DNA of 64,000 nt from a bacterium (GCA_016935765.1 JAFGQG010000017.1:1-64000), one strand, 5' to 3'. Numbered from the stretch's first letter, positions 47,007 to 62,462 are shown. Numbers and translations are program-made. The notes: generated by a model not told the origin, from the letters alone.

Positions 47007-50000
47007 ATGAGAATTCAATTTAATGTTTTTCTCTTTGTTGTTATTTTCTTCACATTACTATCAGCGCAGGGTAATTATGAAATAATGCTGAACCGCCCCG
47101 ATATCAATGGTTTAACAGGAGGAGGCACTACAAACCTGGATGGAATACCCACAAGGGGTCTTACGATCGGGACCATCATGCTGATCTATGACGGTTCCGA
47201 GACGAGGATCTATCGCTTGAGTGCCGGGACTGATGCCGAAAACTCCCCCGAAGTCGTCCGACCCGACGATTTTGCAAGTCCGGGCAACGAGAAGGTCTGG
47301 AAGGTTTCGTTATCCAGCGATCCGGAAGAGGCGGGTTATGTTGCAGGTACTGACGATTTCCAGCGCTTGCGAGCAGAGGATAATCCCTGGCTTCGGGACT
47401 CGGTTACATTCGTACCCGGCGCGAACGTTGTATTAACTCAGCTTGGCGATACAATCCGCATCACGGCCGCAGCAGGCGCTTTCGATGATGATTGGACCCG
47501 TAACGATAATTACGTACATGCTGCAAATACAACCGACTCGGTAGGAATTGGTGTAACTTCACCAGGAACAAAACTTCATGTAGAAGGAAAGTTAAAGGGC
47601 AATGCAGAAACTCCGGGTGATGCAGTAGCATATTTCGTTAATACAGAGACCTCTCACGCGAATAACATTGCAGCGGTCATGGGAATCAATATGGGTGACA
47701 GCACGACCGGCTATGGCGGTTACTTTAAAGGGGGTTCACGTGGTGTTATGGGCGAAGTGATACACCGTGGCACAATGGACTATTACGGTCTTTATGGATA
47801 TGCCCAGCGTGAGCTGATACTCACACCCGCAGGCACCAACTACGGCGTTTATGGTGCCGCAATTAATGGCGGGACGAATTATGGTTTATATGGGGAAGCC
47901 TTCGGCGGAGATTCATCTGATTGGGCAGGATACTTTTCAATGGGGAATGTTTATGTTGACGAAGACCTGGGTGTCGGAGTTAAATACCCAAAGCACAAAA
48001 TACATGTTGAAGACTATCAAAACGGCGACTGCGAAACATCTGAAGACGCAATCGCATATTTTAAAAACACTTCGACTTCTGGCACTAACAATGCCGCAGC
48101 GGTCATGGGAATCAATATGGGCGACAGCACGACAGGCTATGGCGGTTATTTTAAGGGGGGATCCCACGGTGTTATGGGCGAAGTCATACACCGCGGCACA
48201 ACAAATCACTACGGCGTTTATGGTTACTCCCAGCGGGAGCTGATACTTACCCCAGCTGGCAACAACTACGGCGTTTATGGTACGGCAATCAATGGCAGTA
48301 AGAATTACGGCTTATATGGGGAAGCCTTCGGCGGAGATTCATCTGATTGGGCAGGATACTTTTCAATGGGGAATGTTTATATCGACGAAGACCTGGGAGT
48401 AGGCGTCGAATATCCCAAGCATAAACTCCACGTTGAAGATTATCAAAACGGCGACTGCGAAAACTTTGGGGATGCAATCGCTTATTTTAAAAACACTTCG
48501 ACATCTGGTACAAACAACACAGCAGCGGTTTTAGGCGTAAATATGGGCGACAGCACTACTGGTCATGGCGGTTACTTCAAGGGCGGTTACCGTGGCGTTA
48601 CAGGGGAGGTTGTCCACCGCGACACAATGGATCATTACGGCGTTTATGGTTTCGCACAGCGGGAACTGATACTACTATCTGACGGCACCAACTATGGCGT
48701 TTATGGGATTGCAATAAATGGCGCTACTAATTATGGCATATATGGCGAAGCTTTCGGGGGCATAACTAACTGGGCTGGGTACTTCTCCGGGGATGTGAAG
48801 ATCGATGGCGACCTAACCGTAACGGGAGAAGGCATAGATGACAATGATTGGGCATTCGCTTCGGGTTCAGGATTAACCGGGGAAATTTACCACACGGGCA
48901 ATGTGGGCATCGGGAACTCTGACCCCACTTACAACCTTGACGTGACTGGAGTGGTACGTATAGATGGCAGAATGAACCTTGCTTCGACCGGGGGTTCCGG
49001 AATTCTGGCTTCGAGCACCAATAGTAGCGGCATTATCGGTTCGACCACATCCGATGGCGCTACTGACGCTGGCGTTAAAGGCTTGGGATATGGCGAAGCT
49101 CCGGCGATATATGGTGCCGCTTTAGATGATGGTAAAGCCGGGTACTTTTCGGGTGACGTTAAAATCACCGGCGAGCTGGAAGTTGGTGGAGAACTACTAG
49201 GAGGTACAGGCTGGGTGGTAGATGAAACAAATCACTTCGTGTACAATACTACGGATAAAATTGGCATTGGAACAGATACACCTTCCACTCAACTCGAAGT
49301 AGATGGCATTATCACTGCTTCTGGAGGCATACTCAGCAACTCTCTCAAGGACCATGGCGGGAAAGTAGTCATAAACCTTAAATCAATCTCGGCAGCCGAA
49401 GGTATATTCCACGTTAACACCCGGTCTGTGACAGATGGATTCGTGGTATCGATAGACAGCGTAGCAAAGTTCGTTGTGGATGCAGGCGGCGGTGTAAGCA
49501 TAGGTGCAAATTCAAACCCGCCTTCAAACGGCTTGTATGTAAAAGGGGCTATGGGTATAGGAACGCTTTCTCCGGGTGGCAAACTTGAGATAAACGAGGT
49601 TGGTGTGAATCCTATTTTACTTGCCAGTAAATCAGACTTTGTCAAGTTTGCAGTCCACAACAACGGCGGAGTAGGAATTGGAGATCCCACAACCCCCCCG
49701 GAGGATGGTTTATATGTGCTTGGAAATTCAAAGCTCGATGGGCATGTTGGTATAGGTGTTGAACCTAGTTCATATAGTAAATTGCACGTTAAAGGAACTG
49801 GTTCTGGTGAATATTGTCCTGCGATGTACGTCCAAAATAGTAACTCGACTGGTAGAGTTATGCATCTTTACAGCAATTCAAGCGATATTCAACTTTTCAT
49901 GCAGCAAGCGGGATCAGGACCATTCATTTCATGCTATGGTTCCGGAGGCACTAAATTCGCAGTGGCTAACGATGGGGCAGTAACCTCAAAGGGACGGTTG

Positions 50001-50465
50001 ACGTGTAAGGAGCTCAAATTGACTGCTGGTTCCGATCTATCCGAAGGTTTCGATATTTTCCAGTCTTCAAGCGAGGATGGCGTTGTAAAGCCTGAACCGG
50101 GGATGGTGGTCAGCATCGATCCCGATAATCCGGGTAAGCTGAAAGTGTGCAGGCAGCCAAATGATCGAATGGTAGCCGGTGTTATCAGCGGAGCTGGAGA
50201 GGTCAGCACGGGAATGTTCATGGCACATAATGGTACTATTGCGGACGGAGAATACCCGGTAGCGCTCACCGGAAGAGTCTATGTCAAGGCGGATGCTGCT
50301 TACGGCTCGATAAGCCCGGGGGACCTCATCACTACCTCTTTAACTCCGGGCTATGCCATGAAGGTACAGGATTATGAGCAAGCCCAGGGAGCCATCCTGG
50401 GGAAAGCAATGACCGCGCTGGATGATGGCAAGGGTCTTGTACTTGTTCTTGTGAGCTTACAGTAA
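47007..50465 (+). CDS. Giant exported fibre-like protein with 142-residue triplication (fibre A1)
   Basis: 1152 residues with a signal peptide (MRIQFNVFLFVVIFFTLLSA). From about residue 180 to 600 it holds three copies of a 142-residue unit, each containing LHVE, a NNxAAVxGxNMGDSTTG block, YFKGG, HYGVYG-like and NYGxYGEAFGG motifs and WAGYFS. The DNA period is exactly 426 bp. Beyond them come glycine-rich VGIG..P...L.V turns as in phage tail-fibre and S74-type proteins. The last 150 residues form a distinct domain: AGSDLSEGFDIF, RMVAGVISGAGE, PVALTGRVYVKADAAYGSI, GKAMTALDDGKGLVLVLVSL. It is shared with the protein at 58272-60818. No T9SS tail. The stop codon overlaps the start of the C10 peptidase gene by 1 nt. 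Confidence 0.85.
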   Translation: MRIQFNVFLFVVIFFTLLSAQGNYEIMLNRPDINGLTGGGTTNLDGIPTRGLTIGTIMLIYDGSETRIYRLSAGTDAENSPEVVRPDDFASPGNEKVWKVSLSSDPEEAGYVAGTDDFQRLRAEDNPWLRDSVTFVPGANVVLTQLGDTIRITAAAGAFDDDWTRNDNYVHAANTTDSVGIGVTSPGTKLHVEGKLKGNAETPGDAVAYFVNTETSHANNIAAVMGINMGDSTTGYGGYFKGGSRGVMGEVIHRGTMDYYGLYGYAQRELILTPAGTNYGVYGAAINGGTNYGLYGEAFGGDSSDWAGYFSMGNVYVDEDLGVGVKYPKHKIHVEDYQNGDCETSEDAIAYFKNTSTSGTNNAAAVMGINMGDSTTGYGGYFKGGSHGVMGEVIHRGTTNHYGVYGYSQRELILTPAGNNYGVYGTAINGSKNYGLYGEAFGGDSSDWAGYFSMGNVYIDEDLGVGVEYPKHKLHVEDYQNGDCENFGDAIAYFKNTSTSGTNNTAAVLGVNMGDSTTGHGGYFKGGYRGVTGEVVHRDTMDHYGVYGFAQRELILLSDGTNYGVYGIAINGATNYGIYGEAFGGITNWAGYFSGDVKIDGDLTVTGEGIDDNDWAFASGSGLTGEIYHTGNVGIGNSDPTYNLDVTGVVRIDGRMNLASTGGSGILASSTNSSGIIGSTTSDGATDAGVKGLGYGEAPAIYGAALDDGKAGYFSGDVKITGELEVGGELLGGTGWVVDETNHFVYNTTDKIGIGTDTPSTQLEVDGIITASGGILSNSLKDHGGKVVINLKSISAAEGIFHVNTRSVTDGFVVSIDSVAKFVVDAGGGVSIGANSNPPSNGLYVKGAMGIGTLSPGGKLEINEVGVNPILLASKSDFVKFAVHNNGGVGIGDPTTPPEDGLYVLGNSKLDGHVGIGVEPSSYSKLHVKGTGSGEYCPAMYVQNSNSTGRVMHLYSNSSDIQLFMQQAGSGPFISCYGSGGTKFAVANDGAVTSKGRLTCKELKLTAGSDLSEGFDIFQSSSEDGVVKPEPGMVVSIDPDNPGKLKVCRQPNDRMVAGVISGAGEVSTGMFMAHNGTIADGEYPVALTGRVYVKADAAYGSISPGDLITTSLTPGYAMKVQDYEQAQGAILGKAMTALDDGKGLVLVLVSLQ

Positions 50466-50479
50466 TGAGGAGCGCTGAG

Positions 50480-52183
50480 ATGAAAGATAGGACAATAGGT
50501 ATAAAAATGAAGTCAATGAAATATATTCTACCAATCTTTGGATTTCTTTTGCTGTTCTTTTTTCAATCGGGGATTTGTGAATCCCTTACAAAAGATGAGG
50601 TAAAGGTGGGGATACAGACCTGGATAAGGGAGGTCGCGGTTGACAGTAAACCTGACGGTACTGTAGAAATCCTTGAACCCCACGTTGTTGCGGGTGAAAC
50701 CCTGGCTTATATTGCCCACATCAGGGGCGGAGGTTTCTGTTTGTGCGGGGCAGATAACTCACTGTTCCCGGTTTATTACTATTCGCCAGAAGGAACTTAT
50801 GATCCGGATGACATTCACTATCAAGCAATTTTGCACGGTATATCGCAAGGCACAAAGAAATTCAGGGGATTGGAAAAAACGCGCTCCGATGAACTGGTCA
50901 AATACAGGAAAAGAAGAGAGACACTTTCCGAATACTGGGACCAGCTTATATCCAGGAGGGTTATTAAGCGTGATCTTTCGAAGGGCATGTGGGATGGTCC
51001 GGATCAGATGAGTTTAGATATTCCATGGTGGACAAACCATCAGTTTCATCCATTTAATATTTTTGCTCCTACCTTGTTTAATCCTGCAGCAAATTGTTCA
51101 CTTCCCAGGTGTCCCGATGGGTGCGTCGCGCATTCGATGAGCTGTATCATGCGCTACTGGGCATGGCCGGATAGCGGAGTTGGCGGAGATACAACTTATT
51201 ATAAATATAGGAGAGCCAGTGATTGGATAGAGGAGCCTCTTTCGTTCAATCCCTTTGGCACAAGTTACGATACTACTCAATGCAGGTGGAAGCAGCGGTT
51301 GAGATGGCGAGCATCGGACGGAGGCTGGATTGGAGTAAAAGGCGACTGGGATGAAGATGATTTTAAATGCGATGCTAAAGATCTTTGTAATGTCAATGCT
51401 GATCTAATTGATACAACTCTAAGCACGGCGGAATCGCTGGCAGTCAGGGCGGCGCTGGACGACATTTGGAGCAGGATGACCCCCAGGCAGGATACCCTGA
51501 TAGCTGACTTCAGCGGTACTGCTTATGACTGGGATAATATGCCTGCTATAATCGGCGAGATAGACACACCGGAAGAGATCAACGCGGTTTCCACTCTCAC
51601 ATATCACACAGCTCTTTCCGTTAAAATGGGCTACGGACGTTATGGTTCAGGTGCTTATACAAATAAATGCCCCGAAGCTCTGGAAAACCACTTCAAGTAT
51701 GATCCTGATGCCGTGAACGGTGTTTACGGGCATTGTACAGAACCAGACACTTGTGAAGGCGCAAAGCTGATGGTTGAAGAAATTCAGTGGTTTAGACCAT
51801 TTCAGTATTATTATGGCTCGCCATTCGTCCATGCATGGTTTTATTGCGGCTACACCAGAAACTATTTGCCTGACTCAATGCTTTTCAGGGATTACTACGG
51901 TAGCTGGGAGGTTTTCGACGACGCAATAATAGAGCATCCGATGAATATAATGATAGCTCCCAAGGATATGGCAAAATTTGTAGGTGCAGATGATCCCGGC
52001 GACGGCTCACCCGATAACCCGTATCAGAACATCAATGAAGTTATTGCAAAAAAAGCTTCAATACCCGATGGCGCTCAAATAATCTTTAAAGCCGGTACCG
52101 AAAATACTTACACGGATTCTCTGCTTCTTGATATCCCAGTTTTACTCAGAGGACAAGATGTACTTATCAAACCAGCGCCCTGA
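50480..52183 (+). CDS. Exported C10 (streptopain-like) cysteine peptidase with beta-helix start, partner of fibre A1
   Basis: Two starts are possible: ATG at 50465 inside the previous stop (TAATG), or ATG at 50480 with GAGGAG seven bases upstream, adopted here (567 residues). A signal segment (MKYILPIFGFLLLFFFQSG) leads into a propeptide-like region. The catalytic Cys lies in PDGCVAHSMSCIMRYWAWP (residue 215) and the His in GSPFVHAWFYCGY (residue 451); between them AVSTLTYHTALSVKMGYGRY matches the helix of C10 enzymes. The Cys-His spacing is about 80 residues longer than in streptopain. The last 65 residues (DPGDGSPDNPYQNINEVIAK on) are the first rungs of a parallel beta-helix, then the protein stops. 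Likely cuts fibre A1 or neighbouring surface proteins; this is inferred from pairing. Confidence 0.82.
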   Translation: MKDRTIGIKMKSMKYILPIFGFLLLFFFQSGICESLTKDEVKVGIQTWIREVAVDSKPDGTVEILEPHVVAGETLAYIAHIRGGGFCLCGADNSLFPVYYYSPEGTYDPDDIHYQAILHGISQGTKKFRGLEKTRSDELVKYRKRRETLSEYWDQLISRRVIKRDLSKGMWDGPDQMSLDIPWWTNHQFHPFNIFAPTLFNPAANCSLPRCPDGCVAHSMSCIMRYWAWPDSGVGGDTTYYKYRRASDWIEEPLSFNPFGTSYDTTQCRWKQRLRWRASDGGWIGVKGDWDEDDFKCDAKDLCNVNADLIDTTLSTAESLAVRAALDDIWSRMTPRQDTLIADFSGTAYDWDNMPAIIGEIDTPEEINAVSTLTYHTALSVKMGYGRYGSGAYTNKCPEALENHFKYDPDAVNGVYGHCTEPDTCEGAKLMVEEIQWFRPFQYYYGSPFVHAWFYCGYTRNYLPDSMLFRDYYGSWEVFDDAIIEHPMNIMIAPKDMAKFVGADDPGDGSPDNPYQNINEVIAKKASIPDGAQIIFKAGTENTYTDSLLLDIPVLLRGQDVLIKPAP

Positions 52184-52453
52184 TTGTATGGAAATACATA
52201 GAATGAACAATATAATCCATACTAACGCTATTTATTATTGTATTGAATAGCAATTGCAGAATAAAGATTAGCGATTGAAGATTTTCGTGGTGACCACAAA
52301 TCAAAAAGACAAATAAAATAATTAGTTGCATTATGCAGATAACCATCTTAGAAGGTCAATTATTATAGTATTCTGGTAATTTGTATAATTCATTATAAGC
52401 ACGAAAAGAACGCTTGACAAACTTATAATTATATTGCAATAACTGGGAACGAT

Positions 52454-52594
52454 ATTGGGTTGACTTTATGTAAATAATGCGAACAAACTACCACTACTTT
52501 ATGTAAGCACTATAACAAATTACAGTTATTTTATAAAACCTGAATAAAAATTGCCTTGACGTTATGTAATATTTAACTTATAATTGGGTTGACT
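52454..52594 (+). promoter_or_regulatory. TTATGTAA operator array and ATTGGGTTGACT repeat
   Basis: TTATGTAA occurs at 52466-52473, 52499-52506 and 52562-52569; spacings of 33 and 63 nt are close to three and six helical turns. The third copy fills the spacer of the promoter below. The 12-mer ATTGGGTTGACT is perfect at 52454-52465 and 52583-52594. Probably a regulator-binding region controlling the ATPase gene. Confidence 0.55.
52556..52584 (+). promoter_or_regulatory. Promoter of the second DUF4143 ATPase
   Basis: TTGACG (52556-52561), a 17-nt spacer and TATAAT (52579-52584). The predicted start near 52591 makes an ATG at 52589 unusable and supports translation from 52631. Confidence 0.6.
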
Positions 52595-52630
52595 ATGTGC
52601 CCAGGCAGTTTAATTACAAATAGTATACAA

Positions 52631-53980
52631 ATGGAAAATCTGTTTCAGAGAAATATCCTACACGAATTAGACAAGTGGTCTAAAAAAAGGGATAGAAAAC
52701 CCTTAATAATCAAAGGCGCTCGCCAGGTAGGTAAAACCACTGCCATTAATATATTTTCAGAGAATTTTGATGAGTACTTGTATTTTAATCTGGATCTAAA
52801 AGAGGACAGAGAACTATTTGAACAAGATCTATCAATTAGTGACTTAATTACAGCGCTTTTTTTATACAGGAATAAATCCAAACCTGACAGAGGAAAAACT
52901 CTTGTTTTTATTGACGAGATACAGAATGTACCAGAAGCTTTATCCCAATTACGGTATTTCTATGAAACCGCCAGTGATTTGTATGTGATTGCTTCAGGGT
53001 CTCTACTGGAGACAATTTCCAGTAGAAAAAAAACATATCCTGTTGGTAGAGTTGAAATATTGAATATGTTCCCTCTAACCTTCTCTGAATATTTAAAAGC
53101 GATGGGATTGAACAAGGTGTTGGAATTTTATGACCTCGTTCCACCCCCAAAATTAGCTCATTCGATACTGCTTAAACACTTTCATCGTTATACCCTATTA
53201 GGCGGGATGCCTGAAGTTATAGAAAAATATAGAAAAACCGAAGACATTCTTATTGCTAATAGTATTTACAGTAATCTTTTAGAAACTTACAAGGAGGATG
53301 TAAAGAAATATGCTCGCAATAATAATATGGCAGAAATTATTCGTTACGCTTTAGATACCGCTCCACTTGAAGCTGGGACAAGAATAAAATTTCATGGGTT
53401 TGGGAATTCTGACTGCGGTTCAAGAAATATGGGAGAAGCTTTACGCACGCTGGAAAAAGCCATGCTTGTTGATATAGTATATCCCACCACAGAGGTAAAA
53501 CCCCCCATGAAGCCTGATTCGAAAAAATCCCCCAAACTTTTTTTCCTGGATACGGGACTGGTAAATTACTCTGTTGGACTTCAAGACCACTTTTTTAAAA
53601 TGGATGACCTACACTCTTTCTACCAGGGTATTTTAGCTGAACATATTGTTGAGCAGGAATTGAAAGCGACATATTGCAAAAACAGAAAATTAAATTTTTG
53701 GGTTCGAGCAAAAAAACAATCTACTGCGGAAGTGGATTTTGTAGTACCCTATAAAAACCTTGTTATTCCCGTGGAGGTAAAATCTGGGAAAAGTGGAACC
53801 TTAAAATCTCTGCACCAGTTTGTGAATAGAGCAAACCATCCTTACGCAATACGGCTTTATGCAGGTTATTTTTCGATAGAAAAACATATTACTCCATCTG
53901 GTACTGAATATTGCCTCTTAAATTTACCATACTATCTTGCGGGAAAATTGAAAACTTTTATGGAATCATTTATCAAATGA
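52631..53980 (+). CDS. AAA-family ATPase with DUF4143 nuclease-like C-terminus
   Basis: 449 residues from the ATG at 52631. That start is chosen because MENLFQRNIL is the usual beginning of this subfamily and an upstream ATG (52589) falls at or before the predicted transcription start. Walker A GARQVGKT is at 29-36, Walker B VFIDEIQNV at 92-100. The C-terminal DUF4143 domain keeps a nuclease-like core (AEVDFVVPYKNLVIPVEVKSG with the EVK motif intact). It is of a different subtype from the ATPase at 12471-13757. It interrupts the fibre-peptidase cluster and has its own promoter and operator array. Confidence 0.92.
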   Translation: MENLFQRNILHELDKWSKKRDRKPLIIKGARQVGKTTAINIFSENFDEYLYFNLDLKEDRELFEQDLSISDLITALFLYRNKSKPDRGKTLVFIDEIQNVPEALSQLRYFYETASDLYVIASGSLLETISSRKKTYPVGRVEILNMFPLTFSEYLKAMGLNKVLEFYDLVPPPKLAHSILLKHFHRYTLLGGMPEVIEKYRKTEDILIANSIYSNLLETYKEDVKKYARNNNMAEIIRYALDTAPLEAGTRIKFHGFGNSDCGSRNMGEALRTLEKAMLVDIVYPTTEVKPPMKPDSKKSPKLFFLDTGLVNYSVGLQDHFFKMDDLHSFYQGILAEHIVEQELKATYCKNRKLNFWVRAKKQSTAEVDFVVPYKNLVIPVEVKSGKSGTLKSLHQFVNRANHPYAIRLYAGYFSIEKHITPSGTEYCLLNLPYYLAGKLKTFMESFIK

Positions 53981-54034
53981 AAGTATTGTAATACTTTTAA
54001 AACAACAAAATAATAAACCAAAGGAGCTGGAAAA

Positions 54035-55837
54035 ATGAAAAATCAACAAAGGAAATTTTGGTGTCCATTTATTTTTGCAGTATTTATTCTTATTACACTG
54101 CTAATTGTGAATTGTTCATTGTTAATTGCCGCAATTCCGCCGATAATGACCTACCAGGGAAAAGTAACTGACACACTCGGTTTGGGAATTAACGATACTC
54201 TGGATATTGGTATCAGTATTTGGACCGCTGAAGACGGTGGTGATTCCCTCTGGAGTGAAACGCATTTTAACGTGCCGATTATCAAAGGCCTCTTCGATGT
54301 TCATCTTGGAATTGATGATTCAATCTTCCTTCCATTTAACAAAGATTACTGGCTGCAGATAATGGTGGATGGAGATAAACTGCTGCCCAGAACGAAGTTG
54401 ACCACCAGCCCTTATGCCTTCCGGGCAATGTACGCAGATAGCGTGGCTGGTAGCGGTGATAATGACTGGACACGTGACTGGAATCATCTTTACACCTATA
54501 ATATCACGGATTCTGTGGGGATCGGGATTATAAATCCCAAGTATAAACTCCACGTGGAGGATAGCGTGGATGGAATAGCAGCTATATCCGGTGATGCAGT
54601 TGGCTATTTTAGAAACACATCATCATCGCTGAATAATTATGCCGCTGCTGTTTACGCTGAAAATATTAGCTCTGTTGATTATGGGTACGGTGGAGTTTTT
54701 AAAGGACAATATGTGGGAGCTTATGGTGGAGTTGTTCATACCGGTGTGCTGGATTATTATGGTTTATATGGTTATGTTGAAAGGGACCTGGAAACTGATC
54801 CCAGCGGATTGAATTACGGTGTCTATGGTAATGCGGTTAATGGGATTGATAATTATGGAGTATTTGGTATTGGAACGGGTTCGGGCACAAATTATGGAGT
54901 ATATGGCACTGCAGCGGGTGGAGCAGTTAACTGGGCAGGTTATTTTGACAATGGCAATGTTTATATTGCGAATAATATTGGCATAGGCACCGAAACTCCA
55001 GAGCACGTTTTACATGTAGAAGGCGTGGAGGACACTTCTGTTCTTTTGGGAGGAGCCGTTGGTTTTTTTAAAAATAACAGTACCAGTATAACTTTACCGC
55101 CTGGAGGAGTATATGGGGAATGCGCTAATATAGACGGAGCAGGTCACGGCGGCTATTTCATCGGTGGAAGCGTCGGAGTTCAGGGAGCTGTTAACGCTTC
55201 CGGTTCAGGAATATACCATGGCGTTTTAGGCTCAGCCAGTGGTGGAGGGGGATCAAATTATGGGGTTAAGGGCGTCGCCACCGGTTCTAACTCCAGTTAT
55301 GCTGTCCAAGGATGGGCTCATGGAACCGGCACTAATTATGCCATTTACGGTAATGCCACTGATGGTGTAACTAACTATGCTGGATATTTTGAAGATGGGG
55401 ACGTTTGTATTGAAAACAATTTAAGTATTGGCTTTGTTAACACAACATGGAAATTAGATGTTAACGGTGACATGAGGGCTGATGATTATTTCGAATTTAC
55501 TGAAGATTATACAGGAGACGCGATTTCAATACTTAAAAAGGTAAAAACCCAAAAAAGTATAAGTGCATCTGAATGGCAACCCGTTGTTCACACTTCCTGG
55601 CCAGATGAAGTCATTGTCGAGACGATTCAGGCAGGAACCTGCAAGGAGCAAAACCTTCCAGATTGCGCGGAATGCATCGATCTGGAAAATAACAAATGTA
55701 AGGTTTACAACCGTTCGCTTGGCGGAGTCTCCTCCATCAATACACGGGCGATACGGCAGCTGATAGAGAGAGTCGAAAGGCTGGAAGAAGAAAATGCTGA
55801 ATTGAAACAGAGATTGCGCAGTCTTGAAATTCAATAA
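54035..55837 (+). CDS. Exported fibre-like protein with C-terminal coiled coil (fibre A2)
   Basis: 600 residues; a hydrophobic signal (FIFAVFILITLLIVNCSLLI) precedes the family N-terminal module IMTYQGKVTDTLGLGINDTL, SLWSETHFNVPIIKGLFDVH, DYWLQIMVDG and TSPYAFRAMYADSV. Tail-fibre-like repeats follow, including LHVE, NYGVYG, NWAGYFDNGNVYI and IGIGTETPEHVLHVEG. The C-terminus differs from A1 and A3: four cysteines (CKEQNLPDCAECIDLENNKC) and a leucine-zipper coiled coil (RVERLEEENAELKQRLRSLE), a likely trimerisation segment as in intramolecular-chaperone fibres. No peptidase gene follows it. AAAGGAG precedes the ATG. Confidence 0.82.
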   Translation: MKNQQRKFWCPFIFAVFILITLLIVNCSLLIAAIPPIMTYQGKVTDTLGLGINDTLDIGISIWTAEDGGDSLWSETHFNVPIIKGLFDVHLGIDDSIFLPFNKDYWLQIMVDGDKLLPRTKLTTSPYAFRAMYADSVAGSGDNDWTRDWNHLYTYNITDSVGIGIINPKYKLHVEDSVDGIAAISGDAVGYFRNTSSSLNNYAAAVYAENISSVDYGYGGVFKGQYVGAYGGVVHTGVLDYYGLYGYVERDLETDPSGLNYGVYGNAVNGIDNYGVFGIGTGSGTNYGVYGTAAGGAVNWAGYFDNGNVYIANNIGIGTETPEHVLHVEGVEDTSVLLGGAVGFFKNNSTSITLPPGGVYGECANIDGAGHGGYFIGGSVGVQGAVNASGSGIYHGVLGSASGGGGSNYGVKGVATGSNSSYAVQGWAHGTGTNYAIYGNATDGVTNYAGYFEDGDVCIENNLSIGFVNTTWKLDVNGDMRADDYFEFTEDYTGDAISILKKVKTQKSISASEWQPVVHTSWPDEVIVETIQAGTCKEQNLPDCAECIDLENNKCKVYNRSLGGVSSINTRAIRQLIERVERLEEENAELKQRLRSLEIQ

Positions 55838-56219
55838 GAATTGGTATGAGAAATTACCTGATTTTTCAACCGGCGTTTTGATGACTAAATAATCCGGGGG
55901 ATTAATTGAGATAGTATTTAGAAAAAACTCCACGGTAAGGATGCCTATATGACAGGCAGGGATGCCTGTCCATACAATTAGAATCAGTTAGATTGATTTC
56001 CGCCTCTTATAAAAGAATCCCAAGGACTTCCTTGAAACTAAAAGTAATATATTTAATAATATACTATTCCAAAAAATGGTTGCCTAAATAGGATTTAGAA
56101 TGTAATTTTACTCTGCTTTTATAAAACAACGATTCTGACTGGTGCATAAAAATATATCTCAGCATTTAAAAGAAATTAGATTAAAGGAATAATATGAAAC
56201 AAAAAAAGAAAGGATTGTT
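55838..56219. other. Intergenic region after fibre A2
   Basis: 382 nt with no credible gene. It contains the REP-like palindrome at 55951-55970 and otherwise AT-rich sequence. No clear promoter was found for the following gene. Confidence 0.6.
55951..55970. repeat. 20-nt REP-like palindrome
   Basis: GACAGGCA (55951-55958) and TGCCTGTC (55963-55970) pair perfectly around a 4-nt GGGA loop. It shares the 10-mer GCAGGGATGC with the hairpin beside the transposase remnant at 35763. Confidence 0.7.
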
Positions 56220-58070
56220 ATGAAAAACTTTTTAGTTACTCTAATATTAGCAGGTTTTTTAGCAGGTGTGGTCTTTGCTGCAGAAATCACCTGGACTGGT
56301 GGCGGTGGAGATACGGACTGGAATAATTCCTGGAATTGGTCTTCCTGGTCAGTGCCCGGTCCAAATGATGATGTAAGGATCCCTGCAGGAGGTCTGGTTA
56401 CGCTTCCTTCTCAAGTTTCAGTCAGAAACTTAATAAACGAGGGACAGATAAGTACATTCGGGGCACCTGCCATGATAGTTGTTTCAGAAGATATATACAA
56501 CTTTGGTTATATTACTATAGGTGGTGTATTTACTGTTTTTTGCGGTTACTCGTTTAATAACTTTAGTATTGTTGGCGCTGACGGAATATATATTAAAGCG
56601 GTAGATGTTGGTAACAGCGAAGATGCCAGTATTCTTTGTCATGATTCGTGTGGATATTCTCTAATTATCGAGGCGAAAAGAGACCTGGCGAATGATGGAT
56701 TGATCATCGGAGGCTCCAAGTCTTCTGGTGATATTTCGTCGGAAAGCGTATATCTAAAATCAGACAGGATTCATAATGATGGAGAGATAAGGGGGGGCGA
56801 TGGTATTGATTCAGTCGATGGAGGAAATGTCTTTTGTAGGTGCAGGATAATGGATAATGACAGTATTATTGCAGGTGGAAACCCGGGAGGATACAGAACC
56901 AAGCCTGGAAAGGTAAAGATCCTGGCTAAGGTGTTCACTGGTAAAAAACCCATCTTCTCGAATATCCGCTCTGAACGCAAAACAGACGATTTTAATAATA
57001 TAACCATTGCCGCTGATACCATTTTATTCCAGTCTGAAAAGGTTTATATGGTCGCGGACAGTATCGTTTTCAAGGGGAAGACGATAATCTTCGACGGCCT
57101 GCCGGGCGGTTCTATTTATGGCGTAAGCGGATTATACTTTTATACTCCTGCCGGCGGTATCATCGATTTCGAGAACAATCATGTAGCACCTACTTTTTCC
57201 ACACCCGGAGAGAATATTATCTTTTGTGACAGCGTTATTGAACCTATAGAGGGTTTGGATTACATCATGTCCTATGCTCCAGTTATCAATCCAGCTGCTA
57301 CGGGCATGGCTGATGGCGATGTCATGGTACTCGATGAAGTTTCCTATACCGAAGAAACCGACACTCTGGTTCTCTCTCTTTTTAATTTGAGTATGTCCCC
57401 CAAAGTACTCAACTATTCAGTAACTTCGTCCAGGGGGTGGCTATCTCCGACCACCAACGTTACTCCCACCCTTGATCCCTTTGAGATAGAAAGTGTCATT
57501 ATTCTTTTTACAATACCTGATGGCACACCATTCGGTTTGAGGGATACCATCACGACTGTACTGACCATTGCTCCGGATTTTACCGATACTTTCTACACAT
57601 ACTTGACCTCCCTTGGAGAGCGCGTTGAGTATGATACAATCATATATGAACTTTCAGCAGGCTGGAACATGTTGTCCTTTCCTTTTTATGACACTATCAA
57701 CGTGCTGGGTAGCTTTCCCTTCGCACTTGGTTCCGCATGGGAATATAATTCCGTGACTGCGTCTTATGATGAGATTGAATCTGCTCCTGCTGGTGTAGGT
57801 TTCTGGCTGCTCTGCCCGAATGACACAACGATCTTTGTGGAGGGCGAAAAAGCCGATACGATAGACTATGCATTCGAACCGGGCTGGCACATGATAAGTG
57901 GTCCTGCTGATACCATCCCTGTTGAGGCACTAACCGATCTCGAAGCGGTCTGGGATGATATCTTCGGCTATGATCCTATACTGAGAAGATATGTTATTGT
58001 GGATTTTCTCCTCCCGGGATTCAGTTACTGGGTTTTTATTGAGGATACAGTGGAATTTAGTTTGCTATAA
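56220..58070 (+). CDS. Exported beta-helix adhesin-like protein
   Basis: 616 residues with a signal peptide (MKNFLVTLILAGFLAGVVFA). The mature N-terminus starts EITWTGGGGDTDWNNSWNWS and continues VPGPNDDVRIPAG, the opening seen in autotransporter and G8-type surface proteins. Residues 60-340 alternate short strands and turns as in a right-handed beta-helix. The C-terminal third has an Ig-like region and two ELSAGWNMLSFPF / FEPGWHMISGP modules found at the ends of FCB surface proteins. There is no YPNPFN tail. AAAGGATTGTT precedes the ATG. Located between fibres A2 and A3, same strand. Probably surface-exposed; ligand unknown. Confidence 0.75.
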   Translation: MKNFLVTLILAGFLAGVVFAAEITWTGGGGDTDWNNSWNWSSWSVPGPNDDVRIPAGGLVTLPSQVSVRNLINEGQISTFGAPAMIVVSEDIYNFGYITIGGVFTVFCGYSFNNFSIVGADGIYIKAVDVGNSEDASILCHDSCGYSLIIEAKRDLANDGLIIGGSKSSGDISSESVYLKSDRIHNDGEIRGGDGIDSVDGGNVFCRCRIMDNDSIIAGGNPGGYRTKPGKVKILAKVFTGKKPIFSNIRSERKTDDFNNITIAADTILFQSEKVYMVADSIVFKGKTIIFDGLPGGSIYGVSGLYFYTPAGGIIDFENNHVAPTFSTPGENIIFCDSVIEPIEGLDYIMSYAPVINPAATGMADGDVMVLDEVSYTEETDTLVLSLFNLSMSPKVLNYSVTSSRGWLSPTTNVTPTLDPFEIESVIILFTIPDGTPFGLRDTITTVLTIAPDFTDTFYTYLTSLGERVEYDTIIYELSAGWNMLSFPFYDTINVLGSFPFALGSAWEYNSVTASYDEIESAPAGVGFWLLCPNDTTIFVEGEKADTIDYAFEPGWHMISGPADTIPVEALTDLEAVWDDIFGYDPILRRYVIVDFLLPGFSYWVFIEDTVEFSLL

Positions 58071-58271
58071 ATATTGGTTTTTGTCAATAATATTAAATGT
58101 GGGGTTATGCTTGTCGGCGTGTTCCGTTTAGAAATTTTAACTTTCTTCATCCCCTTTTTATGCCCACAGTGCCTTCCCCATATTAATAAACTTGCTTTCT
58201 GAAAATTTTATCCTATCATTTATCATTATATTTTTTAAACACTCAACCATTTAAAACTCAAAGGAGACAAA

Positions 58272-60818
58272 ATGCGTAAGTTGATGTTTATCTTGTGGTT
58301 AACTATGCTTATTTGGGTCACTTACAGTCAAGGACAGATACCCCGTGTAATAAGCTACCAGGGATATTTAACTGACGACGAATCAGCGCCGCTTCCCGAC
58401 GGGACCTACTCTATTATTTTCCGAATCTTCGATACCGAGACAGGGGGGATTCCTCTCTGGAATGAATCGCAGGAAGTGGAGTTGGAAAGAGGAATATACA
58501 ACACATACCTGGGCATGACCAGTTCCTTGAATTTGCCTTTCGATGAACCTTACTGGCTTGAAACCGTGGTGTCAGGAACCATTCTCACTCCCCGGGTACG
58601 TTTGAGCTCCTCACCATATGCTCTCAACGCTCCACATTCAGACTCCGTGTCCTACGCCGATGAAGCTGGGGTAGCCAACGAACTTAACTGGTCTGACCTG
58701 ACCGGCATTCCTGCAGATATAAATGACGGGGACGACTATTTTGAAGGGGCGATAGCCAGTGGGGACCTGGATGGCACCTATCCCGATCCTATTGTTACCG
58801 GATTGCAGAGTGTGGAGATTTCTCCAACCCCCCCAGCTTCAGGACAGGTTTTGAAATACGATGGGGCAGCCTGGGCACCAGGAACGGATCTCTCCGGGGG
58901 CGGCGAAGTTGGCTCTCTCGAGGAGGTCCTCGCGACCGGAAATTCCGCCGGAAGCTACGATATAAACCTGAATGATAACTCCATTCTCAATATTGACTGG
59001 TCAATGTCCGACCAGGGACCGGGTTCCGGGCTGGACGCTGATCTCCTGGATGGCCAGCAGGGAACATATTACCTGGATTGGAGTAACTTTTCAGGAATAC
59101 CTGCTGGTCTCGCCGATGGAGATGACTATCTCGCGGGAGAAAGCGCTGAGGGAGACCTCTCCGGAACTTACCCTAATCCCACACTTTATTCCATCAAGGG
59201 TATTATAATATCCGGGGACATACCAGAAGCTGGAGATATTTTGAAATATAACGGGGACATGTGGAGTTACAGCGAGGACCTCACAGCCAGCGGATTGATC
59301 TACTTGAATGACCTTGCTGACGTTTCAATTCTCTCTCCTGATGTTGGCGAAGTGCTGAAATGGAATGGAACCCGCTGGCTGAATGCCCATGATTCCGTGG
59401 GAACTACTGGCGGAGGAGACAACGACTGGGCGTACGGTTCAGGCAGCGGTCTCACCGGCGACCTCTACCGCACCGGGAATGTCGGCATCGGGATTACCAG
59501 TCCGCACGCCAAGCTCTCACTGGGCGCATCTGCCGGCGATAAGCTGTTCCTATTCGAAAACGGCGGAGATACTTACGGCTTTGGAATACAGAGCGACCTT
59601 CTCCAGATATTTTCCGGCTCCGGTACTGCCGATATTGCTTTCGGATTCGGCAATTCCACCGATTTCACAGAATATCTCAGGTTTGTAGCACCTTACGGAA
59701 AAGTTGGTATCAGGGTCTCCGAACCTGAATATTACCTTCATCTAGAAGCTGCCGATGGAGATAAACCGGTAGCTTATTTCAAGAATAATTTCATACTGGG
59801 CAATGGTATGGGAGTGTGGGGGGAATGTTCTGTCGTGGATGGCGCAGGTACAGGCGGTTACTTCGTTGGCGGAGCTTATGGCGTTCAAGCAAAGGTAGTC
59901 GCAACCGGGGAGGAAAGCTACCGGGGATTAACCGCCTCGGTTATGGGTGGCAGTGGACAGAGTTACGGTGTTCAGGGGATAGCCTATGGTGCTGGTTTTA
60001 ACTATGGGGTGTACGGGGTTGCTGTAGGAGGTACAGAAAATTGGGCTGGATATTTCTTGGGCGATGCATATTTTAGCGGCAAGGTGGGTATCGGTACCAC
60101 CGAACCCGAGCATCCTCTGCATGTTGACGGCCTGGAGATACTGGCTACCGGAACCTCCGGGGGATTCAAGTTCCGGGACCGGGGAGAAGGACCTGCTGAC
60201 AACTGGGTGTGGTACTCCAACTTGAACGTTGCACGTTTCTATCGGCAGGGAACCGGGGACCTGATCGGCATCACTACCGACGGCAAGGTTGGAATCGGAA
60301 CCACCAGCCCGATGGATAAACTAGATGTACGCGGAACCATACGAACTGAAGCCCTGAAAACTGAAACCTTACGAACCGATGTTCTTGTAATTTTAGGCGG
60401 CTCAGACCTCTCCGAGCAGTTCGAAGTAAAAGCAGAGCAGACCCCTCAGCCGGGAATGTTAGTATCCATTGGCGAAAGCAATCCCGGAATGCTGGTCATA
60501 AGTGATGTTGCTTATGATAAGAAAGTAGCCGGGATTATAAGCGGCGCGGGAGACATCAATACCGGCATGCTAATGAGCCAGGAGGGCAGTCTTGCGGATG
60601 GACAATACCCCATTGCTTTAAGCGGCAGGGTATATTGTTGGGCAGACGCTTCTGAAAACCCCATTTCACCCGGCGATTTACTGACAACTTCATCTGAACC
60701 TGGTTATGCCATGAAAGTAACCGACCACTCACGGGCGACAGGCGCTATTATTGGTAAAGCGATGAGCGCCCTGGAAAGTGGAACCGGATTGATACTGGTC
60801 CTGGTCAACCTGCAGTAA
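58272..60818 (+). CDS. Exported fibre-like protein with conserved C-terminal domain (fibre A3)
   Basis: 848 residues with signal peptide (MRKLMFILWLTMLIWVTYSQ). The N-terminal module (IPRVISYQGYLTDDESAPLP, GGIPLWNESQEVELERGIYN, PYWLETVVSG, SSPYALNAP) matches fibre A2. Three SDLTGIPADINDGDDY / GTYPDPI-type collagen-like linker repeats follow, then the fibre repeats (GNVGIGITSPHAKLSLGA, NYGVYGVAVGGTENWAGYF, VGIGTTEPEHPLHVDG). The last 150 residues (GGSDLSEQFEV, KKVAGIISGAGD, PIALSGRVYCWADAS, GKAMSALESGTGLILVLVNL) are closely related to those of A1. GGAG is upstream of the ATG. The C10 peptidase gene begins 15 nt after its stop. Confidence 0.85.
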   Translation: MRKLMFILWLTMLIWVTYSQGQIPRVISYQGYLTDDESAPLPDGTYSIIFRIFDTETGGIPLWNESQEVELERGIYNTYLGMTSSLNLPFDEPYWLETVVSGTILTPRVRLSSSPYALNAPHSDSVSYADEAGVANELNWSDLTGIPADINDGDDYFEGAIASGDLDGTYPDPIVTGLQSVEISPTPPASGQVLKYDGAAWAPGTDLSGGGEVGSLEEVLATGNSAGSYDINLNDNSILNIDWSMSDQGPGSGLDADLLDGQQGTYYLDWSNFSGIPAGLADGDDYLAGESAEGDLSGTYPNPTLYSIKGIIISGDIPEAGDILKYNGDMWSYSEDLTASGLIYLNDLADVSILSPDVGEVLKWNGTRWLNAHDSVGTTGGGDNDWAYGSGSGLTGDLYRTGNVGIGITSPHAKLSLGASAGDKLFLFENGGDTYGFGIQSDLLQIFSGSGTADIAFGFGNSTDFTEYLRFVAPYGKVGIRVSEPEYYLHLEAADGDKPVAYFKNNFILGNGMGVWGECSVVDGAGTGGYFVGGAYGVQAKVVATGEESYRGLTASVMGGSGQSYGVQGIAYGAGFNYGVYGVAVGGTENWAGYFLGDAYFSGKVGIGTTEPEHPLHVDGLEILATGTSGGFKFRDRGEGPADNWVWYSNLNVARFYRQGTGDLIGITTDGKVGIGTTSPMDKLDVRGTIRTEALKTETLRTDVLVILGGSDLSEQFEVKAEQTPQPGMLVSIGESNPGMLVISDVAYDKKVAGIISGAGDINTGMLMSQEGSLADGQYPIALSGRVYCWADASENPISPGDLLTTSSEPGYAMKVTDHSRATGAIIGKAMSALESGTGLILVLVNLQ

Positions 60819-60833
60819 TCAAGGAGAATTAAG

Positions 60834-62462
60834 ATGAGACTGAAAATAATAATTATTATCCTGTTTTTGCCACTTGTTCTCGCCCACGCGGAGAAACTGC
60901 CTTCTCAGATCATACAATCTGCTGTTCAAACCTGGGTCAGAGAAGTTACCGCGGACGCACGGCCCGAAGCCGTGGTGGAGGAACTAACCCCCTATGTTGT
61001 GGATGGCGACACAGCTGTTTATATCGCTTATTTGAACGATGAAGGATATTGCGTCACCGGTGTATATGAAGAAATGCTCCCAGTTTATTTCTACAGTCCT
61101 CACGGGGACTTTGACTATGACGATGTCCGTATGAGTCAAGCGCTTATTACGATCAGGGAGAGTTACCATAATTTTATGGACAAGCTATTACTTGGTGGAA
61201 CAGAGGGAGAAAAAGCTTGGGAAGTTGCTGAGGAGAGAAGGGCGTACTGGAACGACCTTGCTGTTGGTAGAATATTCTGGCAACTCGGTACAACGTCGAT
61301 CATGGATGGTCCGGACTCTATGCGGGTCCCCAATTTCCCGCTGTGGGGCGGTGATCAGCACTGGCCCATGAATGCTCTCACCCCGTACATTGTGACCTGG
61401 GCAGGTCCCTGTACTCTTCGAACCGTGGACGGATGCACCGCGCACTCTATGGCAATGATTCTTCGAACCTGGGAGTGGCCGGTTATCGGTCAGGGGCGAG
61501 ACAGCACTGATTATGACGTGAGAACCGGTTATTTCTGGGAAAACACCCCCCTGAATTTTTATCCCTTTGTCGCTGGATTCGACAGTATGCATTGTGTCTG
61601 GAGAAATAGGATAAGGTGGAGAACAGGTGTAGATGGCGGAGAACTGGGCATCGCGGGTACCTGGGATCATACTCTTATCAACTGGGCGAAATTCCACGTG
61701 GAACCATCCCTCGACTCAATCCACAAGGCGGAATATGATACCGCGCTGGAGATACTGTGGAGAAGGCTTACACCCGTTCCGGAGAGAATCCGCGCTGACT
61801 TCTCAACTACCGTTTACCGTTACGATTTAATGCCCCTGGTGCGTGACAGCATAGATACACCTGAAGAAATAAACGCTGTTTCAACTCTAACCTCAAGTTG
61901 CGGTATTGCTTCACACATGATGTACGGGGTATTAGAGTCCGCAGCATGGTGCATCCCTGAAACCTACATAGAGCATTTCCGATTTGATGAGGATGCGATA
62001 GGCAACACCTTCATTCACTGCCCGGAACCGGACACCTGTTCCGGAATGAAGACTATTGTGGATGAAATTCAATGGCGGCGAGTGGTGAATTACCATTACG
62101 GCGCTCCGATCAGTCACGCCTGGTGCATATATGGCTACAACCGGACATTTTTACCTGATTCCATGCAGGTACTCGCCGACAATTACATCTGGATGACATT
62201 CGTGACGGACATCGTTGAGCACCCCATGGTTTACAGGTTAGCTCCCAAGGACGCAGTTAAGTTCGTGGGCGGCACACGAGCTGGAGATGGCTCCCCCGCT
62301 TCACCTTATTCTTCATTTGAGACAGCCATTGCGGACACTGCATCCCTCCTGGACGATGTAACCCTGATATTCAAGGCTGGATCAGATAATGTAATCGCCG
62401 CTGACTCGGTAGTGGTTTCCAAACCGATGATATTGAAGGGATACTATTCGACGATAAGGTAA
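60834..62462 (+). CDS. Exported C10 (streptopain-like) cysteine peptidase, partner of fibre A3
   Basis: 542 residues from the ATG at 60834 with AAGGAG eight bases upstream and a signal peptide (MRLKIIIIILFLPLVLAHAE). It is homologous over its length to the peptidase at 50480-52183: AVQTWVREVTADARPEAVVE propeptide, Cys201 in VDGCTAHSMAMILRTWEWP, AVSTLTSSCGIASHMMYG, and His428 in GAPISHAWCIYGY. It ends with the same beta-helix opening (AGDGSPASPYSSFETAIADT). The stop at 62462 comes after YYSTIR; another frame continues FDDKVTWSAKPTPGW to a stop 55 nt later, so a small frameshift at the tail is possible. Two homologous peptidases each following a fibre gene imply a functional pair. Confidence 0.82.
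   Translation: MRLKIIIIILFLPLVLAHAEKLPSQIIQSAVQTWVREVTADARPEAVVEELTPYVVDGDTAVYIAYLNDEGYCVTGVYEEMLPVYFYSPHGDFDYDDVRMSQALITIRESYHNFMDKLLLGGTEGEKAWEVAEERRAYWNDLAVGRIFWQLGTTSIMDGPDSMRVPNFPLWGGDQHWPMNALTPYIVTWAGPCTLRTVDGCTAHSMAMILRTWEWPVIGQGRDSTDYDVRTGYFWENTPLNFYPFVAGFDSMHCVWRNRIRWRTGVDGGELGIAGTWDHTLINWAKFHVEPSLDSIHKAEYDTALEILWRRLTPVPERIRADFSTTVYRYDLMPLVRDSIDTPEEINAVSTLTSSCGIASHMMYGVLESAAWCIPETYIEHFRFDEDAIGNTFIHCPEPDTCSGMKTIVDEIQWRRVVNYHYGAPISHAWCIYGYNRTFLPDSMQVLADNYIWMTFVTDIVEHPMVYRLAPKDAVKFVGGTRAGDGSPASPYSSFETAIADTASLLDDVTLIFKAGSDNVIAADSVVVSKPMILKGYYSTIR

What the first reader, a model, noticed from the sequence alone, without database searches (positions are those of the whole stretch)
47007..62462. 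Candidate surface system: fibre-like proteins paired with C10 cysteine peptidases
Two exported fibre-like proteins (47007-50465, 58272-60818) share a conserved C-terminal domain of about 150 residues. Each is immediately followed by a homologous exported C10-type peptidase, with a 1-nt overlap in one case and a 15-nt gap in the other. The third fibre (54035-55837) has a different, coiled-coil C-terminus and no peptidase. Presence of the shared C-terminal domain thus tracks presence of the peptidase, which suggests the domain is the substrate or docking partner. Each peptidase also ends in the start of a beta-helix, possibly a docking module. What is seen: pairing, coupling, homology. What is inferred: processing or assembly of surface fibres.
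Basis: partly seen in the sequence, partly recalled or inferred. Interest (0 to 1): 0.85.

Follow-up and report, generated by a model that had tools for sequence, protein, structure and literature searches.

The report
Surface fibres paired with tagged peptidases
Across many bacterial phyla, a gene for a surface fibre ending in a phage-like tip domain is followed at once by a gene for a secreted enzyme, usually a peptidase of almost any family, that carries a short matching tag; this suggests an undescribed way for bacteria to mount interchangeable enzymes on fibres.

Summary
In this genome all five fibres with the strong C-terminal domain (CTD) are followed by C10 peptidases, and all six C10 genes lie there. 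The CTD occurs in at least 16 phyla, usually next to a different enzyme: astacin, reprolysin-like, subtilase, trypsin, C25 or others. In the 80 best CTD loci, 63 of 73 next genes encode it, all within 70 nt. In 37 other uncut CTD loci the next gene has it in 27 by profile (31 with four read by eye). C10 peptidases without this "stub" end in FlgD/secretion-tail domains, and none of those examined has a CTD neighbour. A second CTD clade pairs with a second stub type, whatever the enzyme. So the tag, not the peptidase, tracks the CTD. Best reading (0.6): the stub docks the enzyme on the trimeric fibre, in a dockerin-like way, for surface display. Docking was not shown. Processing of the fibre by the peptidase is less likely. 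I found no description of the module in the family libraries or open-access papers searched.

The parts
47007..50465 (+). Fibre gene A (1152 aa): signal peptide, repeated VGIG/LHV shaft segments, CTD at the extreme C-terminus
50013..50462 (+). CTD of fibre A (type I), about 145 aa, ends at the stop codon
   Evidence: profile E 3.9e-75; alignment A1
50465..52183 (+). Exported C10 peptidase A (572 aa as annotated; more likely start ATG at 50516)
   Evidence: Peptidase_C10 1.3e-25; Cys/His present
51920..52171 (+). Type I beta-helix stub at the C-terminus of peptidase A
54035..55837 (+). Third fibre, coiled-coil C-terminus, no CTD, no stub partner (contrast case)
58272..60818 (+). Fibre gene B (848 aa) with weak MAT-like N-terminal domain and CTD
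60381..60815 (+). CTD of fibre B (type I); modelled at pLDDT 92
60834..62462 (+). Exported C10 peptidase B (542 aa), 15 nt after fibre B
   Evidence: Peptidase_C10 1.5e-16
62205..62456 (+). Type I beta-helix stub at the C-terminus of peptidase B; modelled at pLDDT 86

Best explanation
The gene pair encodes a surface fibre and its enzyme cargo. The fibre is exported by Sec and forms a trimeric shaft like phage tail fibres and Bdellovibrio MAT fibres (inferred). It ends in a small all-beta tip domain (CTD) whose fold resembles phage trimeric cement/head-fibre and pre-neck-appendage chaperone domains (shown by model and Foldseek, modest scores). The next gene encodes a secreted enzyme, usually a peptidase of almost any family, that carries a free-standing stub made of the cap and first rung of a right-handed beta-helix, normally at its C-terminus (shown by profile). 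I infer that the open beta edge of the stub, or its cap, docks on the CTD or fibre end, so that the enzyme is held on the fibre outside the cell. The enzyme part is interchangeable and the CTD/stub couple is the constant part, with at least two matching codes (type I and type II). In logic this is like cohesin and dockerin, with unrelated modules. The gene coupling, the interchangeability and the matching types are shown; physical docking, trimerisation, surface location and benefit to the cell are inferred.
For: In the own genome 5/5 strong CTDs have a C10 next door, and 6/6 C10s are paired. In the own phylum every testable strong CTD has a C10 next. Among the 80 best CTD loci, 63 of 73 next genes carry the type I stub, all 63 start within 70 nt (median 14), and 61 of 63 have a signal-peptide-like N-terminus. 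In 39 whole genomes, 42 of 47 strong stubs have a CTD upstream on the same strand within 9 kb, and no CTD-stub pair lies on opposite strands within 6 kb. Independent CTDs: 27/37 by profile, 31/37 with four read by eye. In 80 Krumholzibacteriota genomes, stub and CTD co-occur in 20 of 22 stub genomes against 26 of 80 CTD genomes, Fisher p = 1e-11. Cargo is diverse: Astacin, Reprolysin/M43, Sortilin-Vps10, C10, Trypsin, S8, Matrixin, M66, C25, beta-lactamase fold. The 10 CTDs beside type II stubs form one clade (SH-aLRT 96; 1 change against 9.8 when shuffled), although C10 occurs with both stub types. The same enzyme family, C10, ends either in a stub (paired) or in a FlgD/secretion tail (19 complete examples, no CTD nearby). 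Two cargoes carry a stub ahead of a Por/FlgD secretion tail, so the stub is not simply the export signal. CTD fold: Foldseek to phi29 gp8.5 base 4e-4, phi29 gp12 C-terminus 3e-3, phage proteins down to 8e-12.
Against: No physical contact was modelled or tested. Within type I, CTD and stub similarities do not correlate (Spearman -0.04 for pairs with unrelated cargo), so there is no fine-scale co-evolution signal. The type I/II match could be operon inheritance rather than recognition, since type II has only 10 cases. Some CTDs lack any stub in the next gene (5-6 of 37; more among divergent CTDs), and some strong stubs have no fibre beside them (about 6 in Krumholzibacteriota). No CTD-stub fusion was found. 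The near-exclusive use of peptidases is not explained by display alone.
Confidence: 0.6

Rival explanations
1. Processing: the neighbouring peptidase cuts the fibre (for example removes the CTD) after assembly, and the stub only positions it.
For: Nearly all cargoes are peptidases. The CTD fold resembles phage pre-neck-appendage chaperone domains that are removed after folding.
Against: Peptidases of at least nine unrelated families with different specificities are unlikely to cut one highly conserved domain (62% mean identity). VPS10/BNR proteins without a peptidase domain are paired in the same way. Phage relatives of the domain cut themselves, by established knowledge.
Confidence: 0.17
2. 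Co-secretion or folding help: the CTD and stub are two halves of an export or folding aid (the stub seeds or caps a beta structure of the fibre), with no lasting display of the enzyme.
For: The stub is an unfinished beta-helix, and such edges are normally covered. Both domains sit at C-termini (112 of 129 stubs, nearly all CTDs).
Against: Stubs also occur inside or at the N-terminus of proteins and ahead of secretion tails. A folding aid does not need an enzyme attached.
Confidence: 0.13
3. Shared inheritance only: the two genes travel together as an operon with no physical interaction; type I and II are lineages.
For: Conserved order and short gaps; no fine-scale co-variation within type I.
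Against: Cargo domains are exchanged while the stub stays, even within one enzyme family, which simple operon descent does not predict.
Confidence: 0.1

Closest known systems
Bdellovibrio mosaic adhesive trimer (MAT) fibres (PMC10769870)
   Same: Exported phage-like fibres with a beta-rich N-terminal domain, beta-prism shaft and exchangeable C-terminal tips; weak N-terminal profile match on two of the window fibres.
   Different: MAT tips are S74 chaperones or adhesive folds. The passages of the paper read here describe no paired enzyme or tag, and the N-terminal match here is below the curated cut-off.
Phage pre-neck appendage / Peptidase_G2 chaperone domain and trimeric cement/head-fibre domains (phi29 gp12, gp8.5)
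   Same: Fold of the CTD; position at the end of a fibre.
   Different: No sequence match above Pfam cut-offs and none at E < 0.3 in the PDB; found in cellular operons with enzyme cargo; no hit in 50,697 annotated phages.
Cohesin-dockerin (cellulosome)
   Same: Logic: a conserved receptor domain on a scaffold and a short tag on interchangeable secreted enzymes, with matching types.
   Different: Unrelated modules; cargo is peptidases rather than glycoside hydrolases; gene pairs rather than one large scaffoldin; binding not shown.
DUF1565 / right-handed beta-helix N-terminal caps (NosD, LIC10774 family)
   Same: Sequence of the stub (10 of 53 stubs match DUF1565, 12 match LIC10774).
   Different: Those are starts of whole beta-helices; here the helix stops after about one rung and serves as a tag.
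Peptidase family C10 (streptopain, interpain)
   Same: Catalytic domain and Cys/His.
   Different: Large insert after the Cys motif, GWGG loop missing in the window members, stub in place of a secretion tail.

Membership tests
Peptidase C10 | Pfam PF01640 above curated cut-off | tested here: met
   91 and 62 bits against 26
Peptidase C10 | Catalytic Cys and His | tested here: met
   Cys 31/33, His 30/33 across loci; the misses are truncated ORFs
Peptidase C10 | Spi-type inhibitory propeptide (I69) | tested here: inconclusive
   14.8 and 12.6 bits, below cut-off 25; the related C18 passes at 27.7
Peptidase C10 | Proteolytic activity | not testable with these tools
   GWGG-like loop missing in both window members
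MAT fibre family | N-terminal MAT domain above curated cut-off | tested here: not met
   25.3 and 19 bits against 60
MAT fibre family | S74 or adhesive tip domain | tested here: not met
   No S74 or other tip domain in Pfam; the CTD is a different domain
MAT fibre family | Trimeric shaft | not testable with these tools
   VGIG repeats suggest it; no oligomer prediction available
Peptidase_G2 (phage chaperone tip) | Pfam PF11962 above cut-off | tested here: not met
   Best seen 18 bits against 25; 13 of 85 weak
Peptidase_G2 (phage chaperone tip) | Same fold | tested here: inconclusive
   3gqh E 3e-3, TM 0.58/0.52; named pre-neck appendage proteins E 5e-9 in BFVD
Peptidase_G2 (phage chaperone tip) | Self-cleavage | not tested
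   Needs protein
Cohesin-dockerin | Cohesin or dockerin domains | tested here: not met
   None in Pfam scans of fibres, peptidases, CTDs or stubs
Cohesin-dockerin | Direct binding of tag and receptor | not testable with these tools
   Only single-chain prediction was available
Type IX secretion cargo | Secretion-system C-terminal sorting domain | tested here: not met
   Absent from stub-tagged C10s; present on unpaired C10s; two other cargoes have both

The most novel reading that the evidence does not exclude
A widespread, undescribed bacterial display system: trimeric fibres whose phage-derived tip domain is a universal receptor for a minimal beta-helix tag, with at least two non-crossing codes, used across many phyla to mount interchangeable extracellular peptidases.
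Probability: 0.45. Interest if true: 0.92.

Novelty: new variant of a known kind. Interest (0 to 1): 0.82.

Why it matters
If docking is real, this is a cohesin/dockerin-like system built from phage-fibre parts and used in at least 16 phyla, including Planctomycetota, Krumholzibacteriota, Bacteroidota, Acidobacteriota and Chloroflexota. It gives a function to two domains that have no curated model of their own, and it predicts where a large set of secreted peptidases sits. It would also offer a small tag/receptor pair for mounting enzymes on fibres. It is directly testable with two short protein fragments from this window.

Tried and rejected
Local duplication: rejected by cross-phylum recurrence. 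Peptidase as the specific partner: rejected by cargo diversity and by C10s without a stub. Stub as a broken or truncated gene: rejected, because the end is conserved across phyla and the stub also occurs internally. Stub as export signal: disfavoured, because it occurs together with Por/FlgD tails. Phage cargo: no hit in INPHARED, only 5 weak IMG/VR hits. Fine-scale co-variation of CTD and stub: none. Stub fold against PDB: only insignificant beta-helix matches, E 0.2 and above. CTD sequence against PDB: nothing meaningful. Literature searches for a description of the pair: none found in open-access papers. Natural CTD-stub fusions: none.

Full report
Observation. Fibres A and B share a C-terminal domain (CTD) of about 145 residues. 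Peptidases A and B are 40% identical throughout, including a C-terminal tail. Both are C10 peptidases by Pfam with Cys and His in place. The third fibre has a coiled-coil end and no peptidase. The 1-nt overlap is doubtful, because a more likely start codon of peptidase A lies about 50 nt further on.

Own genome. The genome (4.0 Mb, about 90% complete) has five strong CTDs. Each is followed on the same strand, within 17 nt or with overlap, by a C10 gene. All six C10 genes of the genome lie in these operons, one of which has two in tandem. One weak CTD hit (C189) has no partner. In the rest of the small phylum (17 genomes) every strong CTD with enough sequence has a C10 next. C10s elsewhere in the phylum are long and unpaired.

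The pairing is wider than C10. A scan of genome contigs gave 312 CTD relatives. The 80 best come from 16 named bacterial phyla plus one archaeal-labelled bin. Only about a dozen have a C10 neighbour. Yet 73 of the 80 have a same-strand gene starting within 120 nt, and 68 of those proteins form one BLASTp cluster. A profile finds it in 63 of the 73 next proteins; several of the misses are cut by contig ends. All 63 genes start within 70 nt of the fibre stop, median 14, and 61 have a signal-peptide-like N-terminus. Across loci 112 stubs are C-terminal, 14 internal (some only 10-13 residues from the end) and 3 N-terminal; the CTD ends at the stop codon in nearly every case.

Cargo. Among 57 of the next proteins Pfam finds Astacin (11), Reprolysin-like (up to 9), Sortilin-Vps10 (7), C10 (6), Trypsin (6), M43 (6), Matrixin (2), a beta-lactamase-fold protein and others. 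The later set adds S8 subtilases (5) and M66, and the type II set adds C25. So the fibre partner is usually a peptidase, of almost any family.

Whole-genome tests. In 39 genomes, 42 of 47 strong stubs (E <= 1e-15) have a CTD upstream on the same strand within 9 kb, and 60 of 87 CTDs have a stub within 4 kb downstream; no pair lies on opposite strands within 6 kb. These genomes include the ones that trained the profile, so I repeated the test on CTDs not identical to training loci, from Bacteroidota, Planctomycetota, Krumholzibacteriota and the own phylum. Of 37 uncut CTDs at E <= 1e-40, 27 have a stub in the next gene by profile and four more by eye. The CTD is sporadic: 5 of 396 Bacteroidota, 9 of 294 Planctomycetota and 26 of 80 Krumholzibacteriota genomes. 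In the 80 Krumholzibacteriota genomes strong stubs occur in 22, of which 20 also have a CTD (Fisher p = 1e-11). Strong stubs without a fibre next to them are partly at contig ends; about six are real orphans, most of them in genomes that have a CTD fibre elsewhere.

Tag, not enzyme. C10 peptidases give a natural control. In Krumholzibacteriota, C10 genes with a stub lie near a CTD in 9 of 11 cases, and C10 genes without one in 0 of 26 (counted by hand; Fisher p = 4e-7; type II stubs were not searched for in every unpaired gene). I fetched 20 regions with unpaired C10s from both phyla. The 19 complete stub-less ones end in secretion-tail-like (FlgD-Ig or Por-type) domains, 9 of 10 confirmed by Pfam, and none has a CTD nearby. 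The same enzyme thus carries either a secretion tail or a stub, and only the stub goes with the fibre.

Two codes. Some CTDs sit next to peptidases with a different C-terminal beta stub, ending in a pattern like NGGxIKxY (type II; C18 in this genome). In a tree of 132 CTDs the ten type II cases form one clade (SH-aLRT 96; one change against 9.8 in shuffles), while C10 enzymes are scattered over both types. In genome G007 an orphan C10 with a type II stub runs off one contig end, and a type II CTD lies at another contig end, as expected for one broken locus. Within type I, CTD and stub similarities do not correlate, so recognition, if real, would be generic within a type.

Structure. The CTD models well (pLDDT 92) and matches trimeric phage parts: phi29 head fibre gp8.5 base (4e-4), cement proteins, the phi29 gp12 C-terminal domain (3e-3), and phage proteins down to 8e-12 including pre-neck appendage proteins. 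By sequence it passes no Pfam, NCBIfam or PHROGs cut-off that I could check. The stub models at pLDDT 86. Its sequence relation to beta-helix starts (DUF1565, LIC10774, NosD) is clearer than its fold match.

Mechanism. I favour fibre-borne display: CTD as receptor, stub as tag, peptidase as cargo. Gene coupling, cargo exchange and type matching are shown. Trimerisation, docking, surface location and use are inferred. Processing of the fibre is a weaker rival, because so many unrelated peptidases and some non-peptidases fill the slot. Folding aid and mere co-inheritance remain possible.

Novelty. Fibres of this general look are known (MAT fibres, PMC10769870), and so are C10 peptidases and beta-helices. 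The CTD-stub pairing is not described in the libraries or open-access papers searched; subscription papers and preprints could not be checked.

Noticed in passing
L018:5683-8994 (contig C105): Two C10 genes in tandem behind one fibre, both with type I stubs; tandem stub genes behind one CTD fibre are seen in other phyla too (L033, L035, L063, L099, L207).
   Followed up: partly
L031, L037, L044, L065, L073, L087, L095: A family starting YVPVRISIKFIL (probable metallopeptidase) carries the stub in the middle, followed by helical repeat-like sequence.
   Followed up: no
L030, L034, L062, L068, L086, L174: Large (830-990 aa) VPS10/BNR propeller proteins with a stub are frequent partners, mostly in Bacteroidota and Krumholzibacteriota; their role is unclear.
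   Followed up: no
L229 and L108 (genome G007): A type II stub C10 and a type II CTD each lie at a contig end; probably one locus split by assembly.
   Followed up: partly
window 52589-53980: AAA_14/DUF4143 ATPase gene sits between the first pair and the third fibre; looks unrelated.
   Followed up: no
window 50465-52183 and 60834-62462; L019:4650-6365: The C10s of the window and of C100 lack the GWGG-like loop after the catalytic His and have a large insert after the Cys motif: a divergent C10 subgroup.
   Followed up: partly
L169, L170 (genome G051): More distant CTD-like domains without stub neighbours, with secretion-tail proteins downstream; possibly a third pairing type.
   Followed up: no
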